A program made the translations under genes and the position numbers. From the NCBI RefSeq assembly GCF_028128765.1, contig NZ_LBJG01000005.1, forward strand, positions 186,001 through 250,000: 64,000 nt of DNA. The letters run 5' to 3'. Origin of the DNA: Bradyrhizobium sp. CCBAU 51627 (lineage in GTDB: Bacteria; Pseudomonadota; Alphaproteobacteria; Rhizobiales; Xanthobacteraceae). The notes under the pieces were generated by a model. It searched no databases. It was not told the DNA's origin and saw only the letters and a program-made list of their open reading frames with translations. This document shows positions 20,556 through 32,504 of this stretch, piece after piece (positions within the stretch are counted from its first letter, which is position 1; each line of letters begins with the position of its first letter).

Positions 20556-21302
20556 TCAATAGGTTGCGCGTCCGCCGGAGATGTCGAAAACGGCGCCTGT
20601 CGAGAACGCGCAGTCTTCGGATGCAAGCCAGGCTACCATCGCGGCCAGCTCTTCCACCAGCACGAACCGCGCCTTGGGGATTTTCGACAGCATGAAGTCG
20701 ATGTGCTGTTGCGTCATCTGGTCGAAGATCGCGGTTTTCGCCGCTGCCGGAGTCACCGCATTCACGAGAATGTCGTGGGCAGCGAGCTCCTTGCCGAGCG
20801 ACTTCGTCAGCGCGATCAGGCCGGCCTTGGAGGCGGAATAGTGCGCGGCGTTCGGATTGCCTTCCTTGCCGGCGATCGAGGCGATGTTGACGATGCGCCC
20901 GTATTTCTGTTGGAGCATCACCGGCACGATCGCCTTGCAGACGATGAAGGGGCCGTCGAGGTTGATGCGCAGCACCTTGCGCCATTCCCCGAGATCGGTT
21001 TCCCAGACCGGCTTGTTGACGCCGGCAATGCCGGCATTGTTGACGAGGATGTCGATCTTGCCGAACGCGGCCAGGGTCGCATCGCGCGCCTCTTCGACGC
21101 CGGCGCTGTCGGTGACGTCGACCTTGAAGACTTTGGTGTTGTCGCCGATCTCCTTTGCGGTCTTCTCGGCCAGCGCGGCATCGAAATCCCAGATCGCCAC
21201 CTTGGCGCCGGAGGCGACGAAGCGCTCGGCAATGGCACGGCCAAAGCCCTGCGCGCCGCCGGTGACGACAGCGACGCGGCCGTTGAGATCGATCTGGTTC
21301 AT
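20556..21302 (-). CDS. SDR family NAD(P)-dependent dehydrogenase (sugar-type)
   Basis: 248 residues, classical SDR. The cofactor motif is TGGAQGFGRAIAERF (residues ~14-28), followed by NNAGIAG and the catalytic Ser-Tyr-Lys with HYSASKAGLIALTKSLGKEL. An Asp after the second strand (IWDFDAAL) favours NAD(H). The annotated frame continues to 21413, but ATG 21302 (MNQIDLNGRVAVVTGG) is the family start. It lies 16 bases after the next SDR gene in the minus-strand arm and is inferred to oxidise a sugar, or a keto-acid intermediate, in the locus. Confidence 0.9.
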   Translation of the reverse strand: MNQIDLNGRVAVVTGGAQGFGRAIAERFVASGAKVAIWDFDAALAEKTAKEIGDNTKVFKVDVTDSAGVEEARDATLAAFGKIDILVNNAGIAGVNKPVWETDLGEWRKVLRINLDGPFIVCKAIVPVMLQQKYGRIVNIASIAGKEGNPNAAHYSASKAGLIALTKSLGKELAAHDILVNAVTPAAAKTAIFDQMTQQHIDFMLSKIPKARFVLVEELAAMVAWLASEDCAFSTGAVFDISGGRATY

Positions 21303-21318
21303 GCTGGGGCCTTTGGCG

Positions 21319-22050
21319 TCAGAGCATGTAGCCGCCATCGACGACAAGGTCGACGCCGGTGGTGAAGGCGCTCTCGTCGCTGCCGAGATAGACCGCCATG
21401 GCCGCGATCTCATCCGCGGTGCCGAGCCGGCCCATCTTCTGGCGGGAGATGAACATCTCCTTGCCTTGCGGTCCCTGCGCGGCGGCGCGGTCGAGCATCG
21501 AGGGGGTCTCGACGGTGCCGGGGCAGATCGAGTTGCAGCGGATGCCCTTGGTGATGAAGTCGAGCGCTACGGCGCGGCTCAGCAGCGACACCGCCGCCTT
21601 GGAAGAGCTGTAGACGTAGCGGTTGGCCGGCGGCCGCAGTGCCGCGCAGGACGAGATGTTGACGATGCTGCCGCCGCCGCCCGCGATCATGTCGGGCAGG
21701 AAGGCCTTGATGGTCCGGTGCATCGACTTGACGTTGAGGTCGAACGAGAAATCGAAATCCTCTTCCGAGCACTCCAGGATGGTGCCGTGATGCACGAAGC
21801 CGGCCGCGTTGAGCAGGATGTCGATCCTGCCGACGCGCTTGGCAAAGGCGTTGACGTCGGCGGTGTTGCGGACGTCGAGCTTTGCGACTTCGGCAATGCC
21901 TTCCTTGGTCAGGCCCGCGATGCCGGCCTCGTTGATGTCGGTGGCGATGACGGTCGCGCCTTCGCGCGCGAATGCGATGGCGCATGCGCGCCCGATGCCC
22001 GCCGCTGCCGCCGTGATGACGGCGCGCTTGCCCTTGAGGCGGTCTGCCAT
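21319..22050 (-). CDS. SDR family oxidoreductase (2-keto-3-deoxy-L-fuconate dehydrogenase-like)
   Basis: 243 residues. The cofactor site is ITAAAAGIGRACAIAFA, with Asp in ATDINEAG indicating NAD. Then come LLNAAGFVHHGTILECSEEDFDFSFDLNVKSMHRTI and the catalytic YVYSSSKAAVSLL. The overall pattern resembles the 2-keto-3-deoxy-L-fuconate 4-dehydrogenase / BDH2-type subgroup; this is family resemblance from memory, not a search. In such pathways the enzyme oxidises a 2-keto-3-deoxy acid. It sits between the other SDR and the dehydratase and is probably in the same transcript, although an 82-base palindromic repeat separates it from the dehydratase gene. Confidence 0.88.
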   Translation of the reverse strand: MADRLKGKRAVITAAAAGIGRACAIAFAREGATVIATDINEAGIAGLTKEGIAEVAKLDVRNTADVNAFAKRVGRIDILLNAAGFVHHGTILECSEEDFDFSFDLNVKSMHRTIKAFLPDMIAGGGGSIVNISSCAALRPPANRYVYSSSKAAVSLLSRAVALDFITKGIRCNSICPGTVETPSMLDRAAAQGPQGKEMFISRQKMGRLGTADEIAAMAVYLGSDESAFTTGVDLVVDGGYML

Positions 22051-22090
22051 GTTGTTCTTCTCCTCACCTGAAACTGTATATCGGACGCCT

Positions 22091-22172
22091 CATTGCGAGG
22101 AGCGAAGCGCCGGAGCAATCCGGGACTCTCTCCGCGGAGATATCTCTGGATTGCTTCGCTTCGCTCGCAATG
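22091..22172. repeat. Palindromic intergenic repeat (CATTGCGAG...CTCGCAATG type)
   Basis: The left arm begins CATTGCGAGGAGCGAAGCG and reaches GCAATCC. The right arm is GGATTGCTTCGCTTCGCTCG followed by CAATG, an imperfect inverted repeat that would form a long hairpin. A related element is at 53673-53786. It sits between the dehydratase and SDR genes. Such elements are common between Bradyrhizobium genes. Confidence 0.8.
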
Positions 22173-22184
22173 ACGCTGTGACGG

Positions 22185-24014
22185 CTAGTGATTGTCCCGC
22201 GGCACGCCGAACGCGGAAGCGACGTTCTGGTAGCGCGTGGCGAGCTCTATGCATCCGCCGGTCGATTGCTGGCCGACGGTGTTGCGATAGATCTCCTGCC
22301 AGGGCGTCTGGTTCGGCGGATGCTTGAAGCCGCCGGCGGCCTTGAGCGCGGCGTGGCGCTTCTTGAGTTCCTCGTCCGAGATGAGGATGTTGGCGCTGCC
22401 CTGGTTGAGGTCGATGCGCACCCTGTCGCCGGTCTTCAGGATCGCGAGCCCGCCGTTGGCGGCAGCTTCCGGCGAGGCGTTCAGGATCGACGGCGAGCCC
22501 GAAGTGCCGGACTGACGGCCGTCGCCGATGCAGGGCAGGGACAGGATACCGCGCTTGATCAGGGCGGCGGGCGGCTGCATGTTCACGACCTCGGCGCCGC
22601 CGGGGTAGCCGATCGGCCCGGTGCCGCGGATGAACAGCACGCAATGCTCGTCGATCTCGAGCGAGGCATCGTCGATCCGCGCGTGATAGTCCTCCGGACC
22701 CTCGAACACGATGGCGCGGCCCTCGAAGGCGTTCAGGTCCTTCGGATTGCTCAAATAGCGGTCGCGGAATTCCTTCGAGATCACGCTGGTCTTCATGATC
22801 GCGGAATCGAACAGATTGCCCCTCAGCACCAGGAAGCCGGCATCCTTCACCAGCGGCTTGTCGTAAGCCCAGATCACGTCGTTGTCGGGCGTGGGTGCAT
22901 TCTTGCAATTCTCGCCGATGCCCTTGCCGTTCACGGTGACTGCGTCCTCATGGATGCGCTTGTGTTTCATCAACTCGCGTACCACGGCCGGCACGCCGCC
23001 GGCGCGGTGGAATTCCTCGCCGAGATAGAAGCCTGCCGGCTGCATGTTGACCAGAAGCGGCACGTCGTGGCCGAATTTTTGCCAATCGTCGATGGACAGC
23101 TCCACGCCGATATGGCGGGCGAGAGCATTGATGTGAATCGGCGCGTTGGTCGAGCCGCCGATCGCCGAGTTGATCACGATGCAGTTCTCGAACGCCTTGC
23201 GGGTCAGGATGTCCGACGGCTTGAGGTCCTCCCAGACCATCTCGACGATGCGTTTTCCCGTCTCATAGGAGATCTGGCCGCGTTCGCGGTAGGGCGCGGG
23301 GATGGCCGCGCAGCCCGGCAGCGAAAAGCCGAGGGCTTCGGCGAGCCCGTTCATGGTCGAGGCCGTGCCCATGGTGTTGCAATGGCCGACCGAGGGCGCC
23401 GAAGACGCCACGATCTCCATGAATTCTTCATAGTCGATCTCGCCGGCGGCGAGCCGCTCGCGCGACTTCCACACGATGGTGCCGGAGCCCGTGCGCTCGC
23501 CGTTGTGCCAGCCGTTGAGCATCGGGCCGCCCGACAGCACGATCGCGGGCAGATTGACGGTCGCGGCCGCCATCATGCAGGCCGGCGTGGTCTTGTCGCA
23601 GCCGGTGGTCAGCACCACGCCGTCGAGCGGATAGCCGTAGAGCACCTCGACGAGGCCGAGATAAGCCAGGTTGCGGTCCAGTGCCGCGGTCGGGCGCTTG
23701 CCGGTCTCCTGAATGGGGTGGGTGGGGAATTCCATCGCAATGCCGCCGGCCTCGCGGATGCCCTCGCGGACGCGGTGGGCCAGTTCGAGGTGATGGCGGT
23801 TGCAGGGGGAGAGGTCGTTGCCGGTCTGGGCGATGCCGATGATCGGTTTGCCGGACTGTAGTTCGGCGCGGGTGAGGCCGAAATTCAGATAGCGCTCCAT
23901 ATAGAGCGCGGTCATGCCCGGATTATGCGGGTTGTTGAACCAGTCCTGCGAGCGAAGGTGGCGGCGGGGGCCGTTGCCGGCGGGCGCATGCCCGTTGGTT
24001 GGTGTTTTTGTCAT
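22185..24014 (-). CDS. IlvD/Edd family sugar-acid dehydratase
   Basis: 609 residues. It has the family's Fe-S cluster cysteines in [16 protein letters not shown] and [20 protein letters not shown], and the C-terminal catalytic-serine segment [40 protein letters not shown] is also typical. Length and sequence fit the aldonate branch (arabinonate, xylonate, galactonate or fuconate dehydratases), which yields a 2-keto-3-deoxy acid, rather than the branched-chain IlvD. AAGGAG lies 8 bases before ATG 24014, so that start is preferred to the TTG at 24029. A LacI-type operator is located about 140 bases upstream. First gene of the minus-strand catabolic arm. Confidence 0.9.
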
Positions 24015-24141
24015 TGGTTTCTCCTTCAATGCAAACGCACGGGCCGACGTCGGGAATGTCGATCGGTGCGCTGCCCGGCAGCGCGAGCAGGTAACAACAG
24101 CCCGCCTGCTGGCGAACGTTTCCTCACAATTGCGATACTAC

Positions 24142-25239
24142 TCATGGGTCGTTGGTAACGCTATCATTTTGTGCGACCGACGACCATTGGTCCGTGCGCG
24201 GGCCGGCTGCGGGCCGGGGTGTTTGTGAGCTCTGTCGCTCGATCACGGTGAAGCCGAGATCGAGCACGGGCTGTTCCGGGCGCCTCCCTTCGATCGCCTC
24301 GATCAGCATCGTCGCAGCCGTGCTGCCCATCTCGTAGCGGTTGGTCCGTACGCTCGTCAGTGTCGGCACTGAGGAAGCCATGAATTCGAGGTCGTTAAAG
24401 CCGACGATCGCGATCTGCTCGGGGACGGCGATTTCCCGGCGCCGGCACTCGAAGAGAACGCCGAGCGCGAGGTCGTCATTGGCGCAGAACACTGCGTCGA
24501 TGTCGCTCTCGCGCGCGATCAGATCGGCGAACAGCGCGCCGCCGAGCGTCACCGAGGTCGGGGTCGCCGTGGTGACGATCAATCTTGGGTCGTAAAGGCC
24601 CGCCTCCTTCATGGCCGCGACATAGCCGTCGAGCCGGCGCTGCACCCGCGGGTCCATGCGTGCGCCGACGAAGCCGATCCTGCGACGCCCTTGGTCGAAC
24701 AGATGCGCAATCGCCGCGCGGGCCGCATCATAATGGGAAAAGCCGATCATCATATCGACCGGCTTGGGCCCAATCTCCATGATCTGGACGATCGGGCAGT
24801 CGGCCGCCTCCAGCATCGCGCGCGATTCCGCGGTCTGGTCGATCCCCGTGACGATCAGTCCAGCGGGCTTCTGCGCCAGAAACAGGCGGAGCAGCTTCTC
24901 TTCCTGGAGAATACTGTAGCGGGTGTTGGACAGCTGGATCGAGTAGCGGCTGCCTTCGGAGGCGTCATAAATGCCCCGCAGCACGTCGGAGAACACGTTG
25001 TTGGTCAGTGACGGAATCAAGACACCAATGACCTCGGTGCGCTGCGAGGCGAGCGCGCGTGCCGCAAGGTTGGGCACATAGCCGAGCTCCCGGGCCGCGC
25101 TTTCGACCCGCGTCCGCTTGGCAACCGACAGTGCCTCGGGATTGCGGAAGAAGCGGGACGCCGTAATCGGGCTGACGCCGGCGAGCTCGGCAACTTCTGC
25201 CAGCCGAATCTTGCCAGACTTGGTGCGCTTTCGTCCCAT
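24142..25239 (-). CDS. LacI family transcriptional regulator
   Basis: 365 residues. HTH at about residues 12-58 (IRLAEVAELAGVSPITASRFFRNPEALS, then the hinge-helix region GYVPNLAARALASQ). The sugar-binding periplasmic-protein-like domain includes VIGVLIPSLTNNVFSDVLRGI, RRIGFVGARMDPRVQRRLDGY, DIDAVFCANDDLALGVLFECR and AIVGFNDLEF. It resembles the gluconate-repressor (GntR, LacI-type) branch. Operators of matching sequence flank it: 25282-25295 in the divergent promoter region and 24153-24166 inside its own last codons, upstream of the dehydratase. It is therefore the likely repressor of both arms, induced by a pathway sugar or acid. Confidence 0.93.
   Translation of the reverse strand: MGRKRTKSGKIRLAEVAELAGVSPITASRFFRNPEALSVAKRTRVESAARELGYVPNLAARALASQRTEVIGVLIPSLTNNVFSDVLRGIYDASEGSRYSIQLSNTRYSILQEEKLLRLFLAQKPAGLIVTGIDQTAESRAMLEAADCPIVQIMEIGPKPVDMMIGFSHYDAARAAIAHLFDQGRRRIGFVGARMDPRVQRRLDGYVAAMKEAGLYDPRLIVTTATPTSVTLGGALFADLIARESDIDAVFCANDDLALGVLFECRRREIAVPEQIAIVGFNDLEFMASSVPTLTSVRTNRYEMGSTAATMLIEAIEGRRPEQPVLDLGFTVIERQSSQTPRPAAGPRTDQWSSVAQNDSVTNDP
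24153..24166. promoter_or_regulatory. LacI-type operator O1, upstream of the dehydratase gene
   Basis: TGGTAACGCTATCA, a pseudo-palindrome with the central CG typical of LacI operators. It matches the reverse complement of O2 (25282-25295) at 12 of 14 positions. It overlaps the last codons of the lacI gene and precedes the dehydratase start by about 140 bases on the minus strand. Confidence 0.75.
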
Positions 25240-25281
25240 TTGTTGCTATTAACACAGTCACCCGCGCAAACAAAGGAACGT

Positions 25282-25295
25282 TGACAGCGCTACCA
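25282..25295. promoter_or_regulatory. LacI-type operator O2, between lacI and the ABC operon
   Basis: TGACAGCGCTACCA, reading TGGTAGCGCTGTCA on the other strand. It lies in the 204-base divergent region, 43 bases from the lacI start and about 150 bases before the ABC ATPase gene, and is placed to control both directions. Confidence 0.75.
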
Positions 25296-25443
25296 GCAAA
25301 GACTAACCAAAGACCAAATTGCCAAACCCGCACAAACTGCCGACAATGTTGCCCGTTAAGGGGGCTTCGGGTCGGCGAAGTTCAGAAAAACAAGACGGTG
25401 GCGGCGCGACAGTTGCGCCGTCTAAGTCGGAGGAGGGAGCTAG

Positions 25444-26505
<1,062 letters not shown>

Positions 26506-26559
26506 CGGCGCTTCGGGACTCAAAGACTGCCAAACACAAATATAAAATTCAGGGAGAGA

Positions 26560-27876
26560 ATGATGAGCGATTTCGACAGGCGCAGTGTGCTTAAAGCCGG
26601 CTTGGGCGGCGCGGCTTTGCTCGCCGGCCCGGGGATTGTCCCCGTCCGGGCGGCGACTTGGACCAACACGCCGGAGCCCAACGCCTCCATCCGCGTGCTG
26701 CGCTGGAAGCAGTTCATCCAGGCCGAGTTCGACAAGTTCGCCGAGCAGACAAAGAAGTTCTCCGAGAAGACCGGCGTCAAGGTGAAGCTCGAGGCCGAGA
26801 GCTGGGAAGACATCCGTCCGAAGGCGGCGGTCGCGGCCAATGTCGGCGCCGGCCCCGATCTCATCATCGGCACGCTCGATGACCCCCACAAATTCCCGGA
26901 GAAGCTGATCGACGTCACCGACATCGCCCAATATCTCGGGGCCCAATATGGCGGCTGGTATCCGGTCGCCGAAAAGTACGGCAAGAAGGGCAATGGCTGG
27001 ATCGCGATTCCGCAAGGCGCGACCGGCGGCTGCATGAACTATCGCACTAGCCACATGAAGGCCGCGGGATTCGAGCAATTCCCGAAGGACACCGCCGGCT
27101 TCCTCAAGCTCTGCCAGGCGTTGAAGAAGAACAACACCCCGGCCGGCTTCGCGCTCGGTCATGCCACCGGCGATGCCAACGGCTGGTGTCAATGGGCGCT
27201 GTGGGCGTTCGGCGGCAAGGTCGTCAACGAGAAGAACGAGGTGGTGCTCGATTCCCCCGAGACGGTCGCGGCCCTCGAATACGTCAAGCAGCTCTATGCG
27301 ACGTTCATTCCGGGCGTGCTGTCATGGAACGATTCGAATAACAACAAGGCCTTCCTCAACGGCGAAATCAGTCTCACCCTGAACGGCATCTCGATCTGGA
27401 CGGTAGGTAAGAACTCTCCTGATCCCAAGCAGCAGGAGATCGCCAAGGACATGGACCATGCGCCCATGCCGATCGGCCCCGTGGGCAAGCCGACCGAGCA
27501 GCAGAACGTCCTGGTCTACTACGGCTACAAGCACTCGAAGTATCCGAAGGCGGTCAAGGAATACATCAAGTTCATGATGGACAAGGAGAACTACGACGCC
27601 TGGGAGGTCGCCTCCAACGGCTACGTCTCGCCGCCGCTCCCGGCCTACAACGACAACCCGGTCTGGACCTCCGATCCCAAGATCACGCCGTACCGCGACT
27701 GCCTCAAGCGCTGCCTGGACAATGGTTATGCCGGCGATCTCGGCTACGCCTCGGCAGCGGTCATGGGCGACTTCGTCGTGGTCGACATGTTCGCCGAAGC
27801 CGCCTCCGGCTCGGCCACGCCGCAGGAAGCTGCCAAGCGCGCCGCCGAGCGCGCCAAGCGCTACTACCAGGTCTGA
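26560..27876 (+). CDS. ABC sugar transporter substrate-binding protein (CUT1), Tat signal
   Basis: 438 residues, family 1 extracellular solute-binding protein. The N-terminus DRRSVLKAGLGGAALLAGPG, with a cleavage-type VRAA near residue 30, matches a twin-arginine signal, so it is predicted to be exported folded to the periplasm. No lipobox is seen. The binding domain has the usual segments, for example WKQFIQAEFDKFAEQTKKF and VKLEAESWEDIRPK, and a conserved hydrophobic LTLNGISIW. The ligand cannot be deduced from sequence alone; its association with a KDPG-type pathway suggests a hexose, a hexonate or an oligosaccharide. A UUCG-capped hairpin follows the stop codon. Confidence 0.93.
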   Translation: MMSDFDRRSVLKAGLGGAALLAGPGIVPVRAATWTNTPEPNASIRVLRWKQFIQAEFDKFAEQTKKFSEKTGVKVKLEAESWEDIRPKAAVAANVGAGPDLIIGTLDDPHKFPEKLIDVTDIAQYLGAQYGGWYPVAEKYGKKGNGWIAIPQGATGGCMNYRTSHMKAAGFEQFPKDTAGFLKLCQALKKNNTPAGFALGHATGDANGWCQWALWAFGGKVVNEKNEVVLDSPETVAALEYVKQLYATFIPGVLSWNDSNNNKAFLNGEISLTLNGISIWTVGKNSPDPKQQEIAKDMDHAPMPIGPVGKPTEQQNVLVYYGYKHSKYPKAVKEYIKFMMDKENYDAWEVASNGYVSPPLPAYNDNPVWTSDPKITPYRDCLKRCLDNGYAGDLGYASAAVMGDFVVVDMFAEAASGSATPQEAAKRAAERAKRYYQV

Positions 27877-27887
27877 TCCGCTAGCGC

Positions 27888-27915
27888 GGCGGCGTCCAGT
27901 TCGCTGGGCGCCGCC
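27888..27915 (+). terminator. Stable UUCG hairpin between binding-protein and permease genes
   Basis: GGCGGCGTCCAG, loop TTCG, CTGGGCGCCGCC: a 12-pair stem (one G-U) with an ultrastable UUCG tetraloop. There is no T-run, so it is more likely a 3'-end stabiliser or attenuator that raises binding-protein mRNA above permease mRNA than a full terminator. Confidence 0.75.
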
Positions 27916-27941
27916 GTCGTCGTTCTGTGAGGGAGTCCGAC

Positions 27942-28889
27942 ATGGCCGTTATTGCCGAGCCCGTCGCGGCGCAGGTCAAGCGCAGCAGCCTGTGGAGCAG
28001 GGCGTTCGAAAGCCGAAATTTTCTCGGCGCCATGTTCATGGTGCCGGCGATCGCCATCCTGATCCTGTTTCTGGCTTACCCGCTGGCGCTCGGCTTCTGG
28101 CTCGGCATGACGGATACCAAGATCGGCGGCGTCGGCCGCTTCATCGGCTTCCAGAACTTCGTCTCGCTGTCCAAGGACTCGGTGTTCTGGCTGTCGGTGT
28201 TCAACACCCTTTTCTACACGGTGTTCGCCAGCATCGTGAAGTTTGCGATCGGACTCTACCTGGCCCTGCTGCTCAACGAGCGGCTGCCGTTCAAGTCGAT
28301 GATGCGCGCCATCGTGCTGTTGCCTTTCGTGGTGCCGACCGTGCTGTCGGCGATCGCCTTCTGGTGGATCTATGACAGCCAGTTCTCGATCATCTCCTGG
28401 GTGCTGATCAAAGCGGGCCTCTTGACTAACTACATCGATTTCCTCGGCGATCCCTGGAATGCGCGCTGGTCGGTCGTTATCGCCAATATCTGGCGCGGCG
28501 TGCCCTTTGTCGCCATTACGCTGCTCGCGGGATTGCAGACCATCTCGCCGTCGCTTTACGAGGCCGCAAATCTCGACGGTGCCACCAACATGCAGCGCTT
28601 CCGCCACATCACGCTGCCGATGTTGTCGCCGATCATCGCGGTAGTGATGACGTTCTCGGTGCTGATGACGTTCACCGACTTCCAGCTGATCTACACCATC
28701 ACGCGCGGCGGGCCGATCAACGCGACGCACCTTATGGCGACGCTGTCTTTCCAGCGTGCCATCACCGGCGGCAATCTCGGCGAGGGCGCGGCGATCTCGA
28801 ATGCGATGATCCCGTTCCTGGTTGCTGCGATCCTGCTCAGCTTCTTCGGGCTTCAGCGCTCGCGCTGGCAGCAGGGCGGGAGGGACTGA
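27942..28889 (+). CDS. ABC sugar transporter permease 1 (CUT1, MalF-like)
   Basis: 315 residues with six or so membrane helices, starting FLGAMFMVPAIAILILFLAYPLALGFWLGM. The cytoplasmic EAA loop that docks on the ATPase is LYEAANLDGATNMQRFRHITLP. GAGGGA precedes ATG 27942 by about 7 bases, so the GTG at 27927 is not preferred. Ends 2 bases before the second permease gene. Confidence 0.93.
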   Translation: MAVIAEPVAAQVKRSSLWSRAFESRNFLGAMFMVPAIAILILFLAYPLALGFWLGMTDTKIGGVGRFIGFQNFVSLSKDSVFWLSVFNTLFYTVFASIVKFAIGLYLALLLNERLPFKSMMRAIVLLPFVVPTVLSAIAFWWIYDSQFSIISWVLIKAGLLTNYIDFLGDPWNARWSVVIANIWRGVPFVAITLLAGLQTISPSLYEAANLDGATNMQRFRHITLPMLSPIIAVVMTFSVLMTFTDFQLIYTITRGGPINATHLMATLSFQRAITGGNLGEGAAISNAMIPFLVAAILLSFFGLQRSRWQQGGRD

Positions 28890-28891
28890 CC

Positions 28892-29767
28892 ATGACCACC
28901 GTAGAAGACCAAAGCGTCGGAATGGACTATCTGGAAAGCTTCCCGCGGAAGTTTCTCCGGGTCTATCTCCCACTCGGCCTGATCATCTTCTTCCTGCTGT
29001 TTCCGTTCTACTGGATGGCGGTGACGACGTTCAAACCCGACGCGGAGATGTACGACTACGAGAAATACAATCCGTTCCTGATCGCGCATCCGACGCTGGA
29101 GCACATCAAGAAGCTGTTCTTTGAAACAGACTATCCCCTGTGGATGTGGAACACCGTCATCGTCTCGGTGTCCTCGACCTTCATCTCGCTGTTCGCCAGT
29201 GTCTGCGCGGCCTACGCGATCGAGCGTCTGCGCTACAAGGGCTCGCGCTATGTCGGCCTTGCGATCTTCCTCGGCTATCTCGTGCCACCCTCGATCCTGT
29301 TCATTCCTCTGGCGGCGATCGTGTTCCAGCTCGGCCTGTTCGACGGCAACCTGGCGCTGATCCTGACCTATCCGACCTTCCTGATCCCGTTCTGCACCTG
29401 GCTGCTGATGGGTTATTTCCGCACCATTCCCTATGAACTGGAGGAATGCGCGCTGATCGACGGGGCGACGCGGCTCCAGATCCTGGTCAAGATCACGTTG
29501 CCGCTGTCGCTCCCGGGAGTGATCTCGGCTGGCATCTTCGCCTTTACCCTGTCCTGGAACGAATTCATCTACGCGCTGACCTTCATCTCCTCGTCGGAGA
29601 ACAAGACGATTCCGGTCGGCGCCATCACCGAACTCGTCAACGGCGACGTCTATCATTGGGGCGCGCTGATGGCGGCGGCCCTGACCGGCTCGGTCCCCGT
29701 AGTTATCCTTTATTCCTTCTTCGTAGAGTACTATGTGTCGGCGATGACCGGCGCCGTGAAGGAGTGA
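28892..29767 (+). CDS. ABC sugar transporter permease 2 (CUT1, MalG-like)
   Basis: 291 residues. The first helix is LPLGLIIFFLLFPFYWMAVTTF, followed by the MalG-type FKPDAEMYDY periplasmic segment. The EAA loop is LEECALIDGATRLQILVKITLPLSLPG. SWNEFIYALTF and the C-terminal FFVEYYVSAMTGAVKE are typical of the second permease. It forms the heterodimeric channel with the preceding gene product. Confidence 0.94.
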   Translation: MTTVEDQSVGMDYLESFPRKFLRVYLPLGLIIFFLLFPFYWMAVTTFKPDAEMYDYEKYNPFLIAHPTLEHIKKLFFETDYPLWMWNTVIVSVSSTFISLFASVCAAYAIERLRYKGSRYVGLAIFLGYLVPPSILFIPLAAIVFQLGLFDGNLALILTYPTFLIPFCTWLLMGYFRTIPYELEECALIDGATRLQILVKITLPLSLPGVISAGIFAFTLSWNEFIYALTFISSSENKTIPVGAITELVNGDVYHWGALMAAALTGSVPVVILYSFFVEYYVSAMTGAVKE

Positions 29768-29843
29768 CCAGCGGGGCCTGCCTGAGAACGCGCCAACACG
29801 TTTCAAGAGCGGCGCGTTCCGGCCAACAAGAAGGAGTAGGCTC

Positions 29844-30830
29844 TTGCACATTTTGGTTCTGGGCGCGGCCGGCATGGTCGGCCGCAAATTGTGTGAACGG
29901 CTGTTGCGCGACGGCCGGCTCGGCAAGAGCGAGATCACCAAGCTGACCATGCATGACGTGGTCGAGCCCAAGAAGCCGGAGAAGGCCGGTTTCGCCGTCG
30001 AGACGGTCGCGGGCGATTTCGCCGTGCCGGGCGCGGCCGAAAAGCTGATTGCCGGTCGCCCCGACGTGATCTTCCATCTCGCAGCGATCGTCTCGGGCGA
30101 AGCCGAGCTCGATTTCGACAAGGGCTACCGCATCAATCTCGACGGCACGCGGATGCTGCTCGATGCCATCAGGCTCGTCGGCGGCGGCTACAAGCCGCGC
30201 GTGGTGTTCACGTCCTCGATCGCGGTGTTCGGGGCGCCGTTCCCGGACGCGATCGGCGACGAGTTCTTCCACACCCCGCTTTTGAGCTACGGCACCCAGA
30301 AGGCGATCGGCGAGCTGCTGCTCGCGGACTATTCGCGCCGCGGCTTCCTTGACGGCATCGGCATCCGCCTGCCGACGATCTGTATCCGTCCTGGACTGCC
30401 CAACAAGGCAGCATCGGGCTTCTTTTCCAACATCCTGCGCGAGCCCCTCGCCGGCAAGGAGGCGGTCCTGCCGGTTTCCGAGGACGTCCGCCACTGGCAC
30501 GCAACGCCGCGCTCGGCCGTCGGCTTTCTGCTGCACGCCGGCACCATGGACCTTGCCACGGTCGGCCCGCGCCGTAACCTGACGATGCCGGGCCTCTCGG
30601 CGACGGTCGGCGAGCAGATCGCCGCCCTGAAGCGCGTTGCGGGCGAGAAGGTCGCGGCCCGCATCAAGCGCGAGCCCGATCCCTTCATCGTCGGAATCGT
30701 CGGCGGCTGGCCGCGCAATTTCGAGGCGAAGCGGGCGCGCGAGCTCGGCTTCACCACCGAAGAGAAATCCTTCGACGATATCATCCGCATTCACATCGAA
30801 GACGAACTCGGCGGCAATTTCGTCGCCTGA
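29844..30830 (+). CDS. NAD-dependent dehydrogenase, DenD (D-erythronate dehydrogenase) family
   Basis: 328 residues, extended SDR / NAD-epimerase fold. The cofactor motif is VLGAAGMVGRKLCERLL; then come DVIFHLAAIVSGEAELDFDKGYRINLDGT and the catalytic LLSYGTQKAIGELLLADYS (Tyr-x-x-x-Lys). This pattern fits the DenD family, which oxidises four-carbon or related sugar acids at C2 or C3; the substrate here may differ. The start is TTG 29844, supported by AAGGAG 8 bases upstream. It follows the permease gene by 76 bases and precedes the kinase by 8, placing it in the catabolic arm. Confidence 0.87.
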   Translation: MHILVLGAAGMVGRKLCERLLRDGRLGKSEITKLTMHDVVEPKKPEKAGFAVETVAGDFAVPGAAEKLIAGRPDVIFHLAAIVSGEAELDFDKGYRINLDGTRMLLDAIRLVGGGYKPRVVFTSSIAVFGAPFPDAIGDEFFHTPLLSYGTQKAIGELLLADYSRRGFLDGIGIRLPTICIRPGLPNKAASGFFSNILREPLAGKEAVLPVSEDVRHWHATPRSAVGFLLHAGTMDLATVGPRRNLTMPGLSATVGEQIAALKRVAGEKVAARIKREPDPFIVGIVGGWPRNFEAKRARELGFTTEEKSFDDIIRIHIEDELGGNFVA

Positions 30831-30838
30831 GTTGTCAG

Positions 30839-31825
30839 ATGAACAGCGTGGATATGACGATGGCGAGCGTGGCTTGCATCGGCGAATGCATGGTCGAGCT
30901 TCGGCAGGCCCAAGGGGGGCAGGCCGGGCAAGGCGGTGGCCTGTACTCGCGTGGCTTCGGCGGCGACACCCTCAACACGGCCGTGTACCTGGCGCGGCTC
31001 GAGGTCAAGGTCGACTATCTCACCGCGCTCGGCGATGACGCCCTGAGCGAGGAGATGGTCGCCGCCTGGAGTGCCGAGGGGGTCGGTACGCGGCGCGTGG
31101 TGCGGCTGCCGGGCAAGCTGCCCGGCCTCTACATGATCCAGACGGATGCCAAGGGTGAGCGCCAGTTCTTCCACTGGCGCGACAGTGCGGCGGCGCGGCA
31201 GCTGATGAGCCTGCCGGAGACGGACGAGCTGCTCAACTCGCTGATGAGCTACGACATCGTCTATCTCTCCGCGATCACGCTCTCGATCTACGATGCGCCC
31301 GGGCGGGAGCGGCTGTTCGCGGCGATCAAGCGCGCGCGTCTGCTCGGCACCCGTTTCGTGTTCGACACCAATTTCCGCGCGCGCGGCTGGCCGGATCGCG
31401 ATGTCGCCCGCGAGGTGTTCGCGGCGGCCTTTGCGGCTGCCGACATCGTGCTGACCTCGACCGAGGATCTGCTCGCGCTCTATCCCGGCGAAAGCCACGA
31501 GCAATTGATGGAGCGCATTCCGACGCCCGAGCTGGTGTTCCGGCTCGCCGAGCCGGTCAGCCTGCTGCGCTTCCCCGGCGGTACCGGCGAGGTCCGCGCC
31601 GAACCAATGAGCAAGCCGGTCGTTGACACCACAGCGGCCGGCGACAGCTTCGCCGCGGCCTATATCGCGGCCCGGCTCGGCGGTTCCGATCCGGTCGAGG
31701 CCGCCCAGGCTGGGCACCGCCTCGCGAGCCTCGTGATCTGCTATCCTGGCGCGATCATTCCGGGCTATGCCATGCCGCCGAAGAAGCGGCACCGGCCGGC
31801 GATCACGCGCCAGGCGACCAAGTAA
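30839..31825 (+). CDS. kdgK: Sugar-acid kinase, PfkB family (2-keto-3-deoxygluconate kinase-like)
   Basis: 328 residues of the ribokinase/PfkB fold. It has an N-terminal MASVACIGECMVELR strand-turn, the GFGGDTLNTAVYLARL substrate loop, RFVFDTNFRARGW, and the anion-hole/catalytic motif VDTTAAGDSFAAAYIAARLG, whose Asp is the base. The TTAAGDS form is the KDG-kinase variant of GAGD. Predicted reaction: ATP-dependent phosphorylation of a 2-keto-3-deoxy hexonate at C6, feeding the aldolase encoded next, 28 bases downstream. Confidence 0.9.
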   Translation: MNSVDMTMASVACIGECMVELRQAQGGQAGQGGGLYSRGFGGDTLNTAVYLARLEVKVDYLTALGDDALSEEMVAAWSAEGVGTRRVVRLPGKLPGLYMIQTDAKGERQFFHWRDSAAARQLMSLPETDELLNSLMSYDIVYLSAITLSIYDAPGRERLFAAIKRARLLGTRFVFDTNFRARGWPDRDVAREVFAAAFAAADIVLTSTEDLLALYPGESHEQLMERIPTPELVFRLAEPVSLLRFPGGTGEVRAEPMSKPVVDTTAAGDSFAAAYIAARLGGSDPVEAAQAGHRLASLVICYPGAIIPGYAMPPKKRHRPAITRQATK

Positions 31826-31853
31826 GATCGAGATCGAAGGTTAGATCGAAAAG

Positions 31854-32504
31854 ATGACCACTGCTGCCCAACAGAACCACCTCGTCGCGCTGTTCAAGGC
31901 CGCGACCGTCATTCCCGTCCTCACCATCGAGCGGATCCAGGATGCCGTGCCGCTGGCGCGGGCGCTGGTGGCGGGCGGCGTCCGCACGCTGGAGGTGACT
32001 CTGCGCACCCCCGTTGCGATCGAGGCGGCGCGGGCGATGATGGCCGAAGTCCCCGAAGCTGTCATCGGCATCGGTACGATCCTCAACCCTGCCGACTTCA
32101 CCCGTGTCGAGAAGCTCGGCGTTGCCTTTGGTATCAGCCCGGGCCTGACCCCGGATTTGCTCAAAGCCGCCGCTGACAGCTCGCTGCCGTTTGCCCCGGG
32201 CATTGCCACCGCGTCCGAGCTGATGATGGCGCTGTCCTACGGCTTCGACGTCGCAAAGTTCTTCCCGGCCGAGCAGGCCGGCGGCATCAAGGGGCTGCGC
32301 TCGCTCGGTGGGCCGTTCCCGAACGTGCGGTTCTGCCCGACCGGCGGGGTGGGCGAAGCCAATGCGGCGACCTGGCTTGCCGAGCCCAACGTGGTGGCGG
32401 TCGGCGGCTCCTGGCTATGCCCGACGGCGGAGATCAGGGCCGGGAACTGGGCCGGCATAACTGCCATTTGCCAGCGCACCCTCCAGGCCCTTAAACCTGC
32501 GTGA
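31854..32504 (+). CDS. eda: 2-keto-3-deoxy-6-phosphogluconate (KDPG) / 4-hydroxy-2-oxoglutarate aldolase
   Basis: 216 residues, normal length. The Schiff-base lysine is Lys135 in GFDVAKFFPAEQAGG and the general-acid Glu47 is in RTLEVTLRTPVAIEA. GIGTILNPADFTRVEKLG and the phosphate-binding CPTGGVGEANA are also present. It splits KDPG into pyruvate and glyceraldehyde-3-phosphate. As last gene of the locus it completes a kinase-aldolase ending, arguing that the upstream dehydratase makes a six-carbon 2-keto-3-deoxy acid. Confidence 0.94.
   Translation: MTTAAQQNHLVALFKAATVIPVLTIERIQDAVPLARALVAGGVRTLEVTLRTPVAIEAARAMMAEVPEAVIGIGTILNPADFTRVEKLGVAFGISPGLTPDLLKAAADSSLPFAPGIATASELMMALSYGFDVAKFFPAEQAGGIKGLRSLGGPFPNVRFCPTGGVGEANAATWLAEPNVVAVGGSWLCPTAEIRAGNWAGITAICQRTLQALKPA

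What the first reader, a model, noticed from the sequence alone, without database searches (positions are those of the whole stretch)
20556..32504. LacI-controlled sugar or sugar-acid locus with a KDPG-type ending and unknown substrate
Seen: two SDR dehydrogenases, an IlvD/Edd dehydratase, a LacI regulator, a complete CUT1 ABC importer, a DenD-like dehydrogenase, a KDG-type kinase and a KDPG aldolase, arranged as two divergent arms around the regulator. Inference: an imported sugar is oxidised, dehydrated to a 2-keto-3-deoxy acid, phosphorylated and cleaved (semi-phosphorylative Entner-Doudoroff). The combination of a DenD-family enzyme with this dehydratase, kinase and aldolase is not a standard pathway I can name, so the substrate and the DenD step are open.
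Basis: partly seen in the sequence, partly recalled or inferred. Interest (0 to 1): 0.62.

Follow-up and report, generated by a model that had tools for sequence, protein, structure and literature searches.

The report
Sugar-acid operon with mirror-image dehydrogenases
A gene cluster conserved in Bradyrhizobium soil bacteria appears to break down a sugar acid by two routes that share one intermediate, and it carries two enzymes that probably attack opposite mirror-image forms of that intermediate; the sugar itself is still unknown.

Summary
The pathway needs revision. The two "SDR dehydrogenases" are probably not aldose dehydrogenases: SDR2 carries the complete R-T-R-R signature of L-2-keto-3-deoxyfuconate 4-dehydrogenase (C4-S selective), and SDR1 is 64% identical to 6D9Y, the published model for the opposite-handed L-2-keto-3-deoxyrhamnonate 4-dehydrogenase, with both proposed carboxylate ligands. 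Both would act after the dehydratase, on C4 of a 2-keto-3-deoxy-aldonate. In a number of relatives such SDRs sit beside the LRA6-type hydrolase that finishes that oxidative route; here a relative of that hydrolase is encoded elsewhere in the genome. The locus thus looks like a branch point: dehydratase, then either KDG kinase plus KDPG aldolase (apparently the genome's only one) or oxidation at C4. Two Bradyrhizobium drafts (99% and 95% complete) keep transporter, DenD, dehydratase and both SDRs with no KDPG aldolase over cut-off. DHT, SDR2, SDR1 and DenD co-localise across the order far above a crude chance estimate. The LacI protein is GntR-like, with one operator present in 8 of 8 LacI+ and 0 of 7 LacI- loci. 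DenD's reaction and the imported substrate remain open. C4 epimerisation by the SDR pair is not excluded.

The parts
20556..21302 (-). SDR1: short-chain dehydrogenase, putative 2-keto-3-deoxy-aldonate 4-dehydrogenase of the L-KDR (4R) type
   Evidence: 64.0% identical to 6D9Y and 60.7% to 9JVE; both proposed ligand residues K and R present
21319..22050 (-). SDR2: short-chain dehydrogenase, putative 2-keto-3-deoxy-aldonate 4-dehydrogenase of the L-KDF/BDH2 (4S) type
   Evidence: 54.2% identical to 2AG5, 52.1% to 8XWK; R144-T179-R188-R203 = type-1 pattern
22185..24014 (-). DHT: IlvD/Edd-family sugar-acid dehydratase
   Evidence: NF009560 1088.8 bits over cut-off 684; closest solved relative 7M3K 'galactonate dehydratase' 1026 bits, then 5OYN 866 bits
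24142..25239 (-). LacI-family regulator, GntR-like
   Evidence: NF052440 (P. aeruginosa GntR) 436.9 bits over cut-off 400
25282..25295 (.). putative operator TGACAGCGCTACCA in the divergent promoter region
   Evidence: only TGNNAGCGCTNNCA in the 64-kb window; present in 8 of 8 LacI+ loci and 0 of 7 LacI- loci
25444..26505 (+). ABC importer ATPase (MsmK/UgpC type)
   Evidence: NF008653 517.7 bits over cut-off 432
26560..27876 (+). CUT1 solute-binding protein
   Evidence: PF13416/PF01547; model with mean pLDDT 87 resembles oligosaccharide-binding SBPs
27942..28889 (+). ABC permease 1
   Evidence: PF00528
28892..29767 (+). ABC permease 2
   Evidence: PF00528
29844..30830 (+). DenD-family NAD-dependent dehydrogenase, substrate open
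   Evidence: NF043036 368.7 bits over cut-off 325; 2HRZ 500 bits
30839..31825 (+). PfkB-family 2-keto-3-deoxygluconate-type kinase
   Evidence: NF052444 300 bits, below cut-off 400; PF00294; solved relatives YdjH (8IWL, top) and ketodeoxygluconokinases 3LHX, 4E69
31854..32504 (+). Eda: KDPG aldolase, apparently the only close KDPG-type aldolase gene of this genome
   Evidence: NF004325 257.8 over 241, TIGR01182 238.1 over 156; genome search PF01081 gives 2 hits, the other being DgoA-like by my reading

Best explanation
The locus is a GntR/LacI-type regulon for a galacto-/gluco-type sugar or sugar acid that branches at the 2-keto-3-deoxy-aldonate. The CUT1 importer brings in the substrate; the aldonate is dehydrated by the IlvD/Edd enzyme (inferred). 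The product can then leave in two ways: (a) phosphorylation by the KDG-type kinase and cleavage by what seems the genome's only KDPG-type aldolase (semi-phosphorylative Entner-Doudoroff ending), or (b) NAD+-dependent oxidation at C4, SDR1 taking the 4R and SDR2 the 4S epimers, to a common 2,4-diketo-3-deoxy acid that an LRA6-type hydrolase encoded elsewhere (G000:C82) splits into pyruvate and a hydroxy acid. Shown here: gene content, diagnostic residues, co-localisation, operator. Inferred: every reaction, and the stereochemical split. The DenD step is undecided; I rank oxidation of a short hydroxy acid (released by route b, or a tetronate) above oxidation of the incoming aldose.
For: SDR2 carries the R-T-R-R pattern that defines type-1 L-KDF 4-dehydrogenases (PMC11199699, passages), as do 36 of 39 further rows aligned (all 36 score 190 bits or more; the 3 without it are distant SDRs at 112 or less; L092 and L145 are the same gene). 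SDR1 matches 6D9Y, which that paper calls a putative L-KDR 4-dehydrogenase of opposite C4 selectivity with Lys209 and Arg247; both residues are in SDR1 and 26 of 35 further rows, one copy is cut off before the Arg, and the other 8 are distant SDRs at 149 bits or less. Of 18 further SDR1 relatives in named contigs 15 have K and R, 3 have R and R. In the order-wide sample LRA6-type genes lie within 3 kb of SDR2 in 14 of 66, and of SDR1 in 6 of 65, non-Bradyrhizobium genomes holding both (about 0.1 expected each). Named precedents: Nitratireductor luteus DHT-DenD-HIBADH-like-(regulator-like frame)-SDR1-LRA6 beside an importer of the window's type; Ruegeria sp. HKCCA6707 LRA6-SDR1-SDR2-like contiguous; Roseibium LRA6 beside SDR2. 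This genome's LRA6 relative has 8GSR, L-2,4-diketo-3-deoxyrhamnonate hydrolase, as best solved match (332 bits, next 209), and an 88-98% identical copy is in the 5 other Bradyrhizobium of the order sample. G244 (99% complete) and G247 (95%) keep DHT, SDR1, SDR2, importer and DenD with no PF01081 match over cut-off. Within 5 kb, non-Bradyrhizobium only: DenD-SDR2 22 of 63, DenD-DHT 17 of 80, DHT-SDR2 17 of 58, SDR2-SDR1 10 of 53, DHT-KDGK 6 of 13.
Against: No LRA6 relative was found in the 64-kb window or in the 14 other Bradyrhizobium stretches, and LRA6 relatives are common anyway (155 of 199 genomes), so its presence in trans is weak support. G038 has SDR2 and SDR1 adjacent but no LRA6 match at E 1e-85, which suits the epimerase rival better. 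The SDR2-like protein of Ruegeria has R-V-R-R, not R-T-R-R, and is only 40% identical. SDR1 also passes NCBIfam subfamily cut-offs named glucose 1-dehydrogenase (232.8 over 215) and FabG (224.7 over 222). SDR2 has Tyr where the characterised enzyme has Trp252. The genome also has DgoK-DgoA-like genes, so a 4R (galacto) intermediate has another outlet. DenD-KDGK within 5 kb is 0 of 12 outside Bradyrhizobium, and SDR2-KDGK 0 of 7, SDR1-KDGK 0 of 13. KDGK and LRA6 were not searched genome-wide in G244 and G247. The co-localisation expectations assume uniform 4.5-Mb genomes and ignore shared ancestry.
Confidence: 0.48

Rival explanations
1. SDR1 and SDR2 work in opposite directions as a redox C4-epimerase: the dehydratase makes a 4R acid such as D-2-keto-3-deoxygalactonate, one SDR oxidises it to the 2,4-diketo acid, the other reduces that to 4S D-2-keto-3-deoxygluconate, and KDG kinase plus Eda finish. 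No hydrolase is needed.
For: Both stereo-types are adjacent with a 16-bp gap here (coordinates) and as a pair without a detected LRA6 or DHT in the stretch in three other genomes (L139, L140, L141, 15-20 kb each), one of which, G038, has no LRA6 match at E 1e-85 at all; KDGK and Eda are in the same locus, and no LRA6 relative was found in the window or 14 other Bradyrhizobium stretches; closest solved dehydratase is annotated galactonate dehydratase; L-KDFDH accepts D-2-keto-3-deoxygluconate, though 105-fold less well than L-KDF (PMC11199699).
Against: SDR1, an SDR2-like gene and LRA6 are one contiguous set in Ruegeria, where a common oxidised product would simply be hydrolysed; G244 and G247 keep both SDRs without Eda; DgoK-DgoA-like genes exist in the genome; no report of such an epimerisation was seen among the 10 of 70 papers listed, of which I saw only the listing in that call.
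Confidence: 0.24
2. One reading: an SDR oxidises the imported aldose, then dehydratase, kinase and aldolase; the second SDR and DenD are accessory.
For: SDR1 exceeds an NCBIfam subfamily cut-off called glucose 1-dehydrogenase; the SBP model resembles neutral oligosaccharide binders; apart from DenD no other candidate aldose dehydrogenase is in the locus.
Against: Diagnostic residues and context of both SDRs fit 4-dehydrogenases; that NCBIfam model is a broad SDR subfamily; no lactonase was recognised among the 11 genes.
Confidence: 0.15
3. DenD is the aldose 1-dehydrogenase of the pathway, like uronate dehydrogenase of the same superfamily, and the rest runs as in the best explanation.
For: If the SDRs act later, DenD is the only other dehydrogenase in the locus; it is next to a dehydratase gene in Caballeronia and one gene away from one in Sinorhizobium and Thioclava.
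Against: DenD passes the D-erythronate dehydrogenase equivalog cut-off, and DenD proteins from tetronate-type loci are interspersed with those from dehydratase-linked loci in the tree, with the same near-invariant core.
Confidence: 0.13

Closest known systems
Non-phosphorylating Route III of L-fucose, L-rhamnose and pentoses (Xanthomonas, Sphingomonas, Herbaspirillum; PMC6336799, PMC11199699)
   Same: Sugar-acid dehydratase plus C4-dehydrogenases of both the KDF and the KDR type, with diagnostic residues kept; an LRA6-type hydrolase relative present in the genome.
   Different: Hydrolase not in the locus; KDG-type kinase and KDPG aldolase are in it instead; DenD in the operon.
Semi-phosphorylative Entner-Doudoroff pathway (dehydratase, KDG kinase, KDPG aldolase)
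   Same: All three functions encoded in one regulon (kinase at family level only).
   Different: Two C4-dehydrogenases and DenD are extra; some Bradyrhizobium lack the kinase-aldolase end in the locus.
D-erythronate/L-threonate catabolism (DenD, LtnD, OtnI, OtnK, OtnC)
   Same: DenD passes the family cut-off; LtnD-, OtnI- and OtnK-like genes lie on C83 of the same genome.
   Different: No tetronate isomerase, kinase or decarboxylase among the 11 genes; DenD is coupled to a dehydratase and a KDF-type SDR.
DenD-HIBADH-dehydratase module on Sinorhizobium meliloti plasmids (with TRAP, FAH, FAD oxidoreductase)
   Same: DenD and dehydratase one gene apart on one strand, 72-73% and 63-64% identical.
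   Different: TRAP instead of ABC import, FAH-family protein instead of kinase and aldolase, no SDR1 or SDR2 found in the stretch.
GntR of Pseudomonas aeruginosa (PMC5902321)
   Same: Same NCBIfam equivalog; operator core TAGCGCT is shared.
   Different: Controls gluconate uptake there; the outer half of its published operator is not matched here.

Membership tests
L-2-keto-3-deoxyfuconate 4-dehydrogenase, type 1 (SDR2) | R-T-R-R residues at 148, 183, 192, 214 of the H. huttiense enzyme | tested here: met
   R144, T179, R188, R203 in SDR2; also in 36 of 39 further aligned rows, the 3 exceptions being distant SDRs; the Ruegeria SDR2-like protein has R-V-R-R
L-2-keto-3-deoxyfuconate 4-dehydrogenase, type 1 (SDR2) | Asp for NAD+ preference at position 41 | tested here: met
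   D38-I39 in SDR2
L-2-keto-3-deoxyfuconate 4-dehydrogenase, type 1 (SDR2) | hydrophobic residue at Trp252, most commonly W, M, F or L | tested here: inconclusive
   Tyr in the window and near relatives, Trp or Phe in others
L-2-keto-3-deoxyfuconate 4-dehydrogenase, type 1 (SDR2) | oxidation of a 4(S)-OH 2-keto-3-deoxy acid | not testable with these tools
   needs enzyme assay
L-2-keto-3-deoxyrhamnonate 4-dehydrogenase (SDR1) | Lys209 and Arg247 of 6D9Y (proposed carboxylate ligands) | tested here: met
   K206 and R244 of the query used (without the initial Met); in named contigs 15 of 18 relatives have K and R, 3 have R and R
L-2-keto-3-deoxyrhamnonate 4-dehydrogenase (SDR1) | oxidation of a 4(R)-OH 2-keto-3-deoxy acid | not testable with these tools
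   needs enzyme assay; 6D9Y itself is only a putative member
Route III pathway | 2,4-diketo-3-deoxy acid hydrolase clustered with the dehydrogenase | tested here: not met
   none in the window or 14 other Bradyrhizobium stretches; relative at G000:C82:224773, unlinked
Semi-phosphorylative Entner-Doudoroff pathway | KDG kinase | tested here: inconclusive
   300 bits against cut-off 400
Semi-phosphorylative Entner-Doudoroff pathway | KDPG aldolase | tested here: met
   over cut-offs of NF004325 and TIGR01182
D-erythronate dehydrogenase DenD | NF043036 equivalog score | tested here: met
   368.7 over 325
D-erythronate catabolic cluster | tetronate isomerase, kinase and decarboxylase beside DenD | tested here: not met
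   none among the 11 genes of the locus; OtnI- and OtnK-like genes on C83
LacI-family GntR (gluconate regulator) | NF052440 equivalog score | tested here: met
   436.9 over 400
LacI-family GntR (gluconate regulator) | release by gluconate or 6-phosphogluconate | not testable with these tools
   effectors known for the Pseudomonas protein only (PMC5902321)

The most novel reading that the evidence does not exclude
The adjacent, stereo-opposite 4-dehydrogenases SDR1 and SDR2 form a redox C4-epimerase for 2-keto-3-deoxyhexonates, converting D-2-keto-3-deoxygalactonate through the 2,4-diketo acid into D-2-keto-3-deoxygluconate, so that galacto-configured sugars enter the ordinary Entner-Doudoroff pathway through KDG kinase and Eda without a dedicated KDPGal aldolase.
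Probability: 0.22. Interest if true: 0.65.

Novelty: new variant of a known kind. Interest (0 to 1): 0.42.

Why it matters
It would join two known sugar-acid routes, oxidative C4 cleavage and semi-phosphorylative Entner-Doudoroff, at one intermediate and under one regulator in a genus of agricultural nitrogen fixers. It also corrects an easy annotation error: SDRs beside an IlvD/Edd dehydratase may act after it rather than before it. The SDR1-SDR2 pair gives a small, directly testable system for stereo-opposite enzymes sharing one achiral centre, and the DenD-SDR2-dehydratase association calls for a substrate for DenD other than, or in addition to, free D-erythronate.

Tried and rejected
Rejected as sole reading: ordinary linear semi-phosphorylative pathway with SDRs as aldose dehydrogenases (see rivals). 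Rejected: standard De Ley-Doudoroff cluster, because kinase and aldolase are of the KDG/Eda and not the DgoK/DgoA kind, and DgoK-DgoA-like genes sit elsewhere. Rejected: L-arabinonate dehydratase label for DHT (534 bits, below cut-off 882). Considered and left open: sulfoquinovose pathway; not tested further, since no glycosidase or sulfolactaldehyde enzyme was recognised among the 11 genes.

Led nowhere or little: the DenD tree did not separate tetronate-linked from dehydratase-linked proteins; the SBP model only says oligosaccharide-type CUT1 fold; no paper holding galactonate dehydratase, KDPG aldolase and Bradyrhizobium was found; the searches gave nothing I used; I went on to only PMC5996035, PMC11199699 and PMC6336799. 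PMC6336799: parts 1-4 of 6 read. PMC11199699: one section and passages. PMC5996035 and PMC5902321: passages. Other papers: listing only.

Limits of counts: the co-localisation survey drew 199 genomes of the order at fixed E-value limits; the six Bradyrhizobium were dropped before counting; distances are between listed match coordinates; the table was cut off at low scores (133 of 155 genomes entered). The 20-kb stretches were chosen because they hold DenD, DHT or SDR hits, so neighbour counts there are not a random sample. Of 80 loci, I analysed the first 18 (49% identity or more, L166-L183). Of 15 FAH-family hits in this genome I read 8 frames and compared one with solved structures; the other 14 were not so compared. 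Gene names in those stretches are my reading of sequence similarity; the names OtnI, OtnC, OtnK, LtnD, HIBADH, PdxA2, DgoK, DgoA, ApnL, GNAT, Edd and Zwf for them come from no database call and are recalled.

Because Ruegeria's SDR2-like protein is not strictly type 1 and G038 lacks an LRA6 match, I moved the best explanation from 0.50 to 0.48, the epimerase rival from 0.22 to 0.24 and the novel case from 0.20 to 0.22.

Full report
What is there. The eleven genes are confirmed at the stated places and strands. The genome is 8.27 Mb and of Bradyrhizobium type: the nearest named match, Bradyrhizobium sp. CCBAU 43298, has MsmK (part), LacI, DHT, SDR2 and SDR1 at 93-99% in the same order. DenD occurs in 144 of 146 sampled genomes of the genus. 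Of 14 further Bradyrhizobium stretches fetched, 7 hold all eleven genes in the same order; in the other 7 tblastn found no LacI; of those, L082, L083, L086 and L088 also show no KDGK and Eda, and L088 keeps only DHT and DenD.

The two SDRs. The best solved relatives of SDR2 are human BDH2 (2AG5, 54.2%) and the Herbaspirillum L-2-keto-3-deoxyfuconate 4-dehydrogenase (8XWK/8Y11, 52.1%) (the same script gives 55.2% for 2AG5 against 8XWK, where the paper states 54%). The paper on that enzyme (PMC11199699, one section and passages) defines its type 1 by three arginines and a threonine, the arginines holding the substrate as a furanosyl hemiketal, with preference for 4(S)-OH acids, including weakly D-2-keto-3-deoxygluconate. 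All four residues are in SDR2 and in 36 of 39 further aligned rows; the three without them are distant SDRs at 112 bits or less, the 36 score 190 or more (two of the 36 are the same gene). For SDR1 the best solved relative is 6D9Y (64.0%), which the same paper proposes as an L-2-keto-3-deoxyrhamnonate 4-dehydrogenase, the enzyme of opposite C4 selectivity, 51 and 54% identical to two characterised ones and with Lys209 and Arg247 as basic residues in the pocket. SDR1 has both, as do 26 of 35 further rows; one copy is truncated before the Arg, and eight distant SDRs at 149 bits or less do not match. In 18 relatives from named contigs, 15 have K and R and 3 have R and R. These are residue-level tests, not activity tests. 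Against them, SDR1 also exceeds the cut-offs of two broad NCBIfam SDR subfamilies, glucose 1-dehydrogenase and FabG.

Context in relatives. In 199 genomes of the order, with the six Bradyrhizobium left out, pairs lie within 5 kb as follows: DenD-SDR2 22 of 63 genomes holding both, DenD-DHT 17 of 80, DHT-SDR2 17 of 58, SDR2-SDR1 10 of 53, DenD-SDR1 7 of 68, DHT-SDR1 3 of 64, DHT-KDGK 6 of 13, DenD-KDGK 0 of 12, SDR2-KDGK 0 of 7, SDR1-KDGK 0 of 13, each with a crude uniform expectation of about 0.2 or less. The expectation ignores shared ancestry. LRA6-type hydrolases lie within 3 kb of SDR2 in 14 of 66 genomes and of SDR1 in 6 of 65. In Nitratireductor luteus DHT, DenD, an HIBADH-like gene, a regulator-like frame, SDR1 and LRA6 lie beside an importer of the window's type; in Ruegeria sp. 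HKCCA6707 LRA6, SDR1 and an SDR2-like gene are contiguous, though that SDR2-like protein is 40% identical and has R-V-R-R; in Roseibium LRA6 adjoins an SDR2 with R-T-R-R. On the other side, three genomes have SDR2 next to SDR1 with no LRA6 or DHT detected in the stretch (L139-L141), and one of them, G038, has no LRA6 match at E 1e-85 anywhere. DenD is next to a dehydratase in Caballeronia and one gene away from one in Sinorhizobium meliloti and Thioclava, and is also found in loci with DUF1537-, OtnC- or OtnI-like genes. In a tree of 52 DenD proteins these contexts are interspersed and the core is shared, so I do not infer a new DenD activity from sequence.

What the genome offers elsewhere. 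PF01081 finds two genes: the window's Eda and a DgoA-like gene next to a DgoK-like gene on C79. Zwf- and Edd-like genes are on C84 without an eda among the frames read around them. Hence the window's Eda probably also serves the ordinary Entner-Doudoroff pathway. Of 15 FAH-family hits, the one at C82:224773 has 8GSR, L-2,4-diketo-3-deoxyrhamnonate hydrolase, as top solved match (332 bits, next 209); I chose it by reading 8 of the 15 frames and did not compare the others. LtnD-, OtnI- and OtnK-like genes lie on C83.

A natural experiment. Among 14 Bradyrhizobium tested, 11 have PF01081 over cut-off. G247 and G237 (both 95% complete) have no match and G244 (99%) only one below cut-off. G244 and G247 nevertheless keep importer, DHT, SDR1, SDR2 and DenD (L086, L083). 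The upstream module therefore seems to work without the KDPG ending. KDGK and LRA6 were not searched genome-wide in those strains.

Regulation. The LacI protein passes the P. aeruginosa GntR equivalog cut-off. The divergent region holds the only TGNNAGCGCTNNCA of the 64-kb window, at 25282-25295; it is present in 8 of 8 loci with LacI and 0 of 7 without. The P. aeruginosa operator is AC-N-AAG-N-TAGCGCT and its effectors are gluconate and 6-phosphogluconate (PMC5902321, passages); only the core is shared here. This makes an aldonate or its phosphate a plausible inducer, no more.

Mechanism and rivals. I favour a branch point at the 2-keto-3-deoxy-aldonate, with kinase-aldolase and C4-oxidation exits (0.48). 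The epimerase reading (0.24; 0.22 in its strong form for D-KDGal) explains why both SDRs share the regulon with the kinase and no hydrolase is in the locus, and fits G038, but not why LRA6 joins such a pair in Ruegeria nor why Eda-less strains keep it. That D-2-keto-3-deoxygalactonate is 4R is my knowledge of the nomenclature; that D-2-keto-3-deoxygluconate is 4S is stated in PMC11199699.

A side finding. SBP, TM1 and TM2 of L078 and L081 are 94-99% identical to the window's, while the 11 other stretches that hold them have SBPs 44-46% and permeases 65-72% identical. Against L079 the DNA identity is about 80-94% across most of both flanks and falls to 46-80% between about 26,500 and 29,800. 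Trees of SBP, TM1 and TM2 put these three strains apart from the other Bradyrhizobium, whereas the MsmK tree does not. The importer core seems to have been exchanged as a cassette inside the operon.

Novelty. The components are known families; the combination is what seems new. In the listings of my library searches I saw no title or abstract start on this cluster; of the papers listed there I looked only into passages of PMC5996035 and parts of PMC11199699 and PMC6336799, and the library lacks most subscription journals. I file it as a new variant of a known kind.

Noticed in passing
26500-29800: Solute-binding protein and both permeases seem to have been exchanged as a cassette: closely related strains carry a 45%-identical SBP between flanks of about 80-94% DNA identity.
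   Followed up: partly
22091-22172: A palindromic repeat lies between the dehydratase and SDR2 genes; its seed is in the window and L078 but was not found in L079-L081, and recurs in 3 of 13 other sampled stretches of this genome.
   Followed up: partly
31854-32504: This eda appears to be the only KDPG-type aldolase gene of the genome, so the operon may also supply the ordinary Entner-Doudoroff pathway.
   Followed up: partly
L086 and L083 (genomes G244 and G247): Bradyrhizobium genomes of 99% and 95% completeness in which no KDPG aldolase passes the family cut-off although most of the locus is kept.
   Followed up: partly
L044:1534-11773, also L043 and L101: A conserved TRAP, FAH, FadR, FAD-oxidoreductase, DenD, (HIBADH-like), dehydratase module on S. 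meliloti plasmids and relatives; substrate not known to me.
   Followed up: no
L164:7631-10722 (own genome, about 1.3-4.4 kb before the window start): A DHDPS-like gene, a DUF1537 kinase gene and a PdxA2-like gene in a row, of the kind seen in D-threonate pathways.
   Followed up: no
L093, L103, L105, L108, L114, L151: A GNAT-like gene lies close to SDR2 in several versions of the locus from other families of the order, which is odd for a sugar pathway.
   Followed up: no
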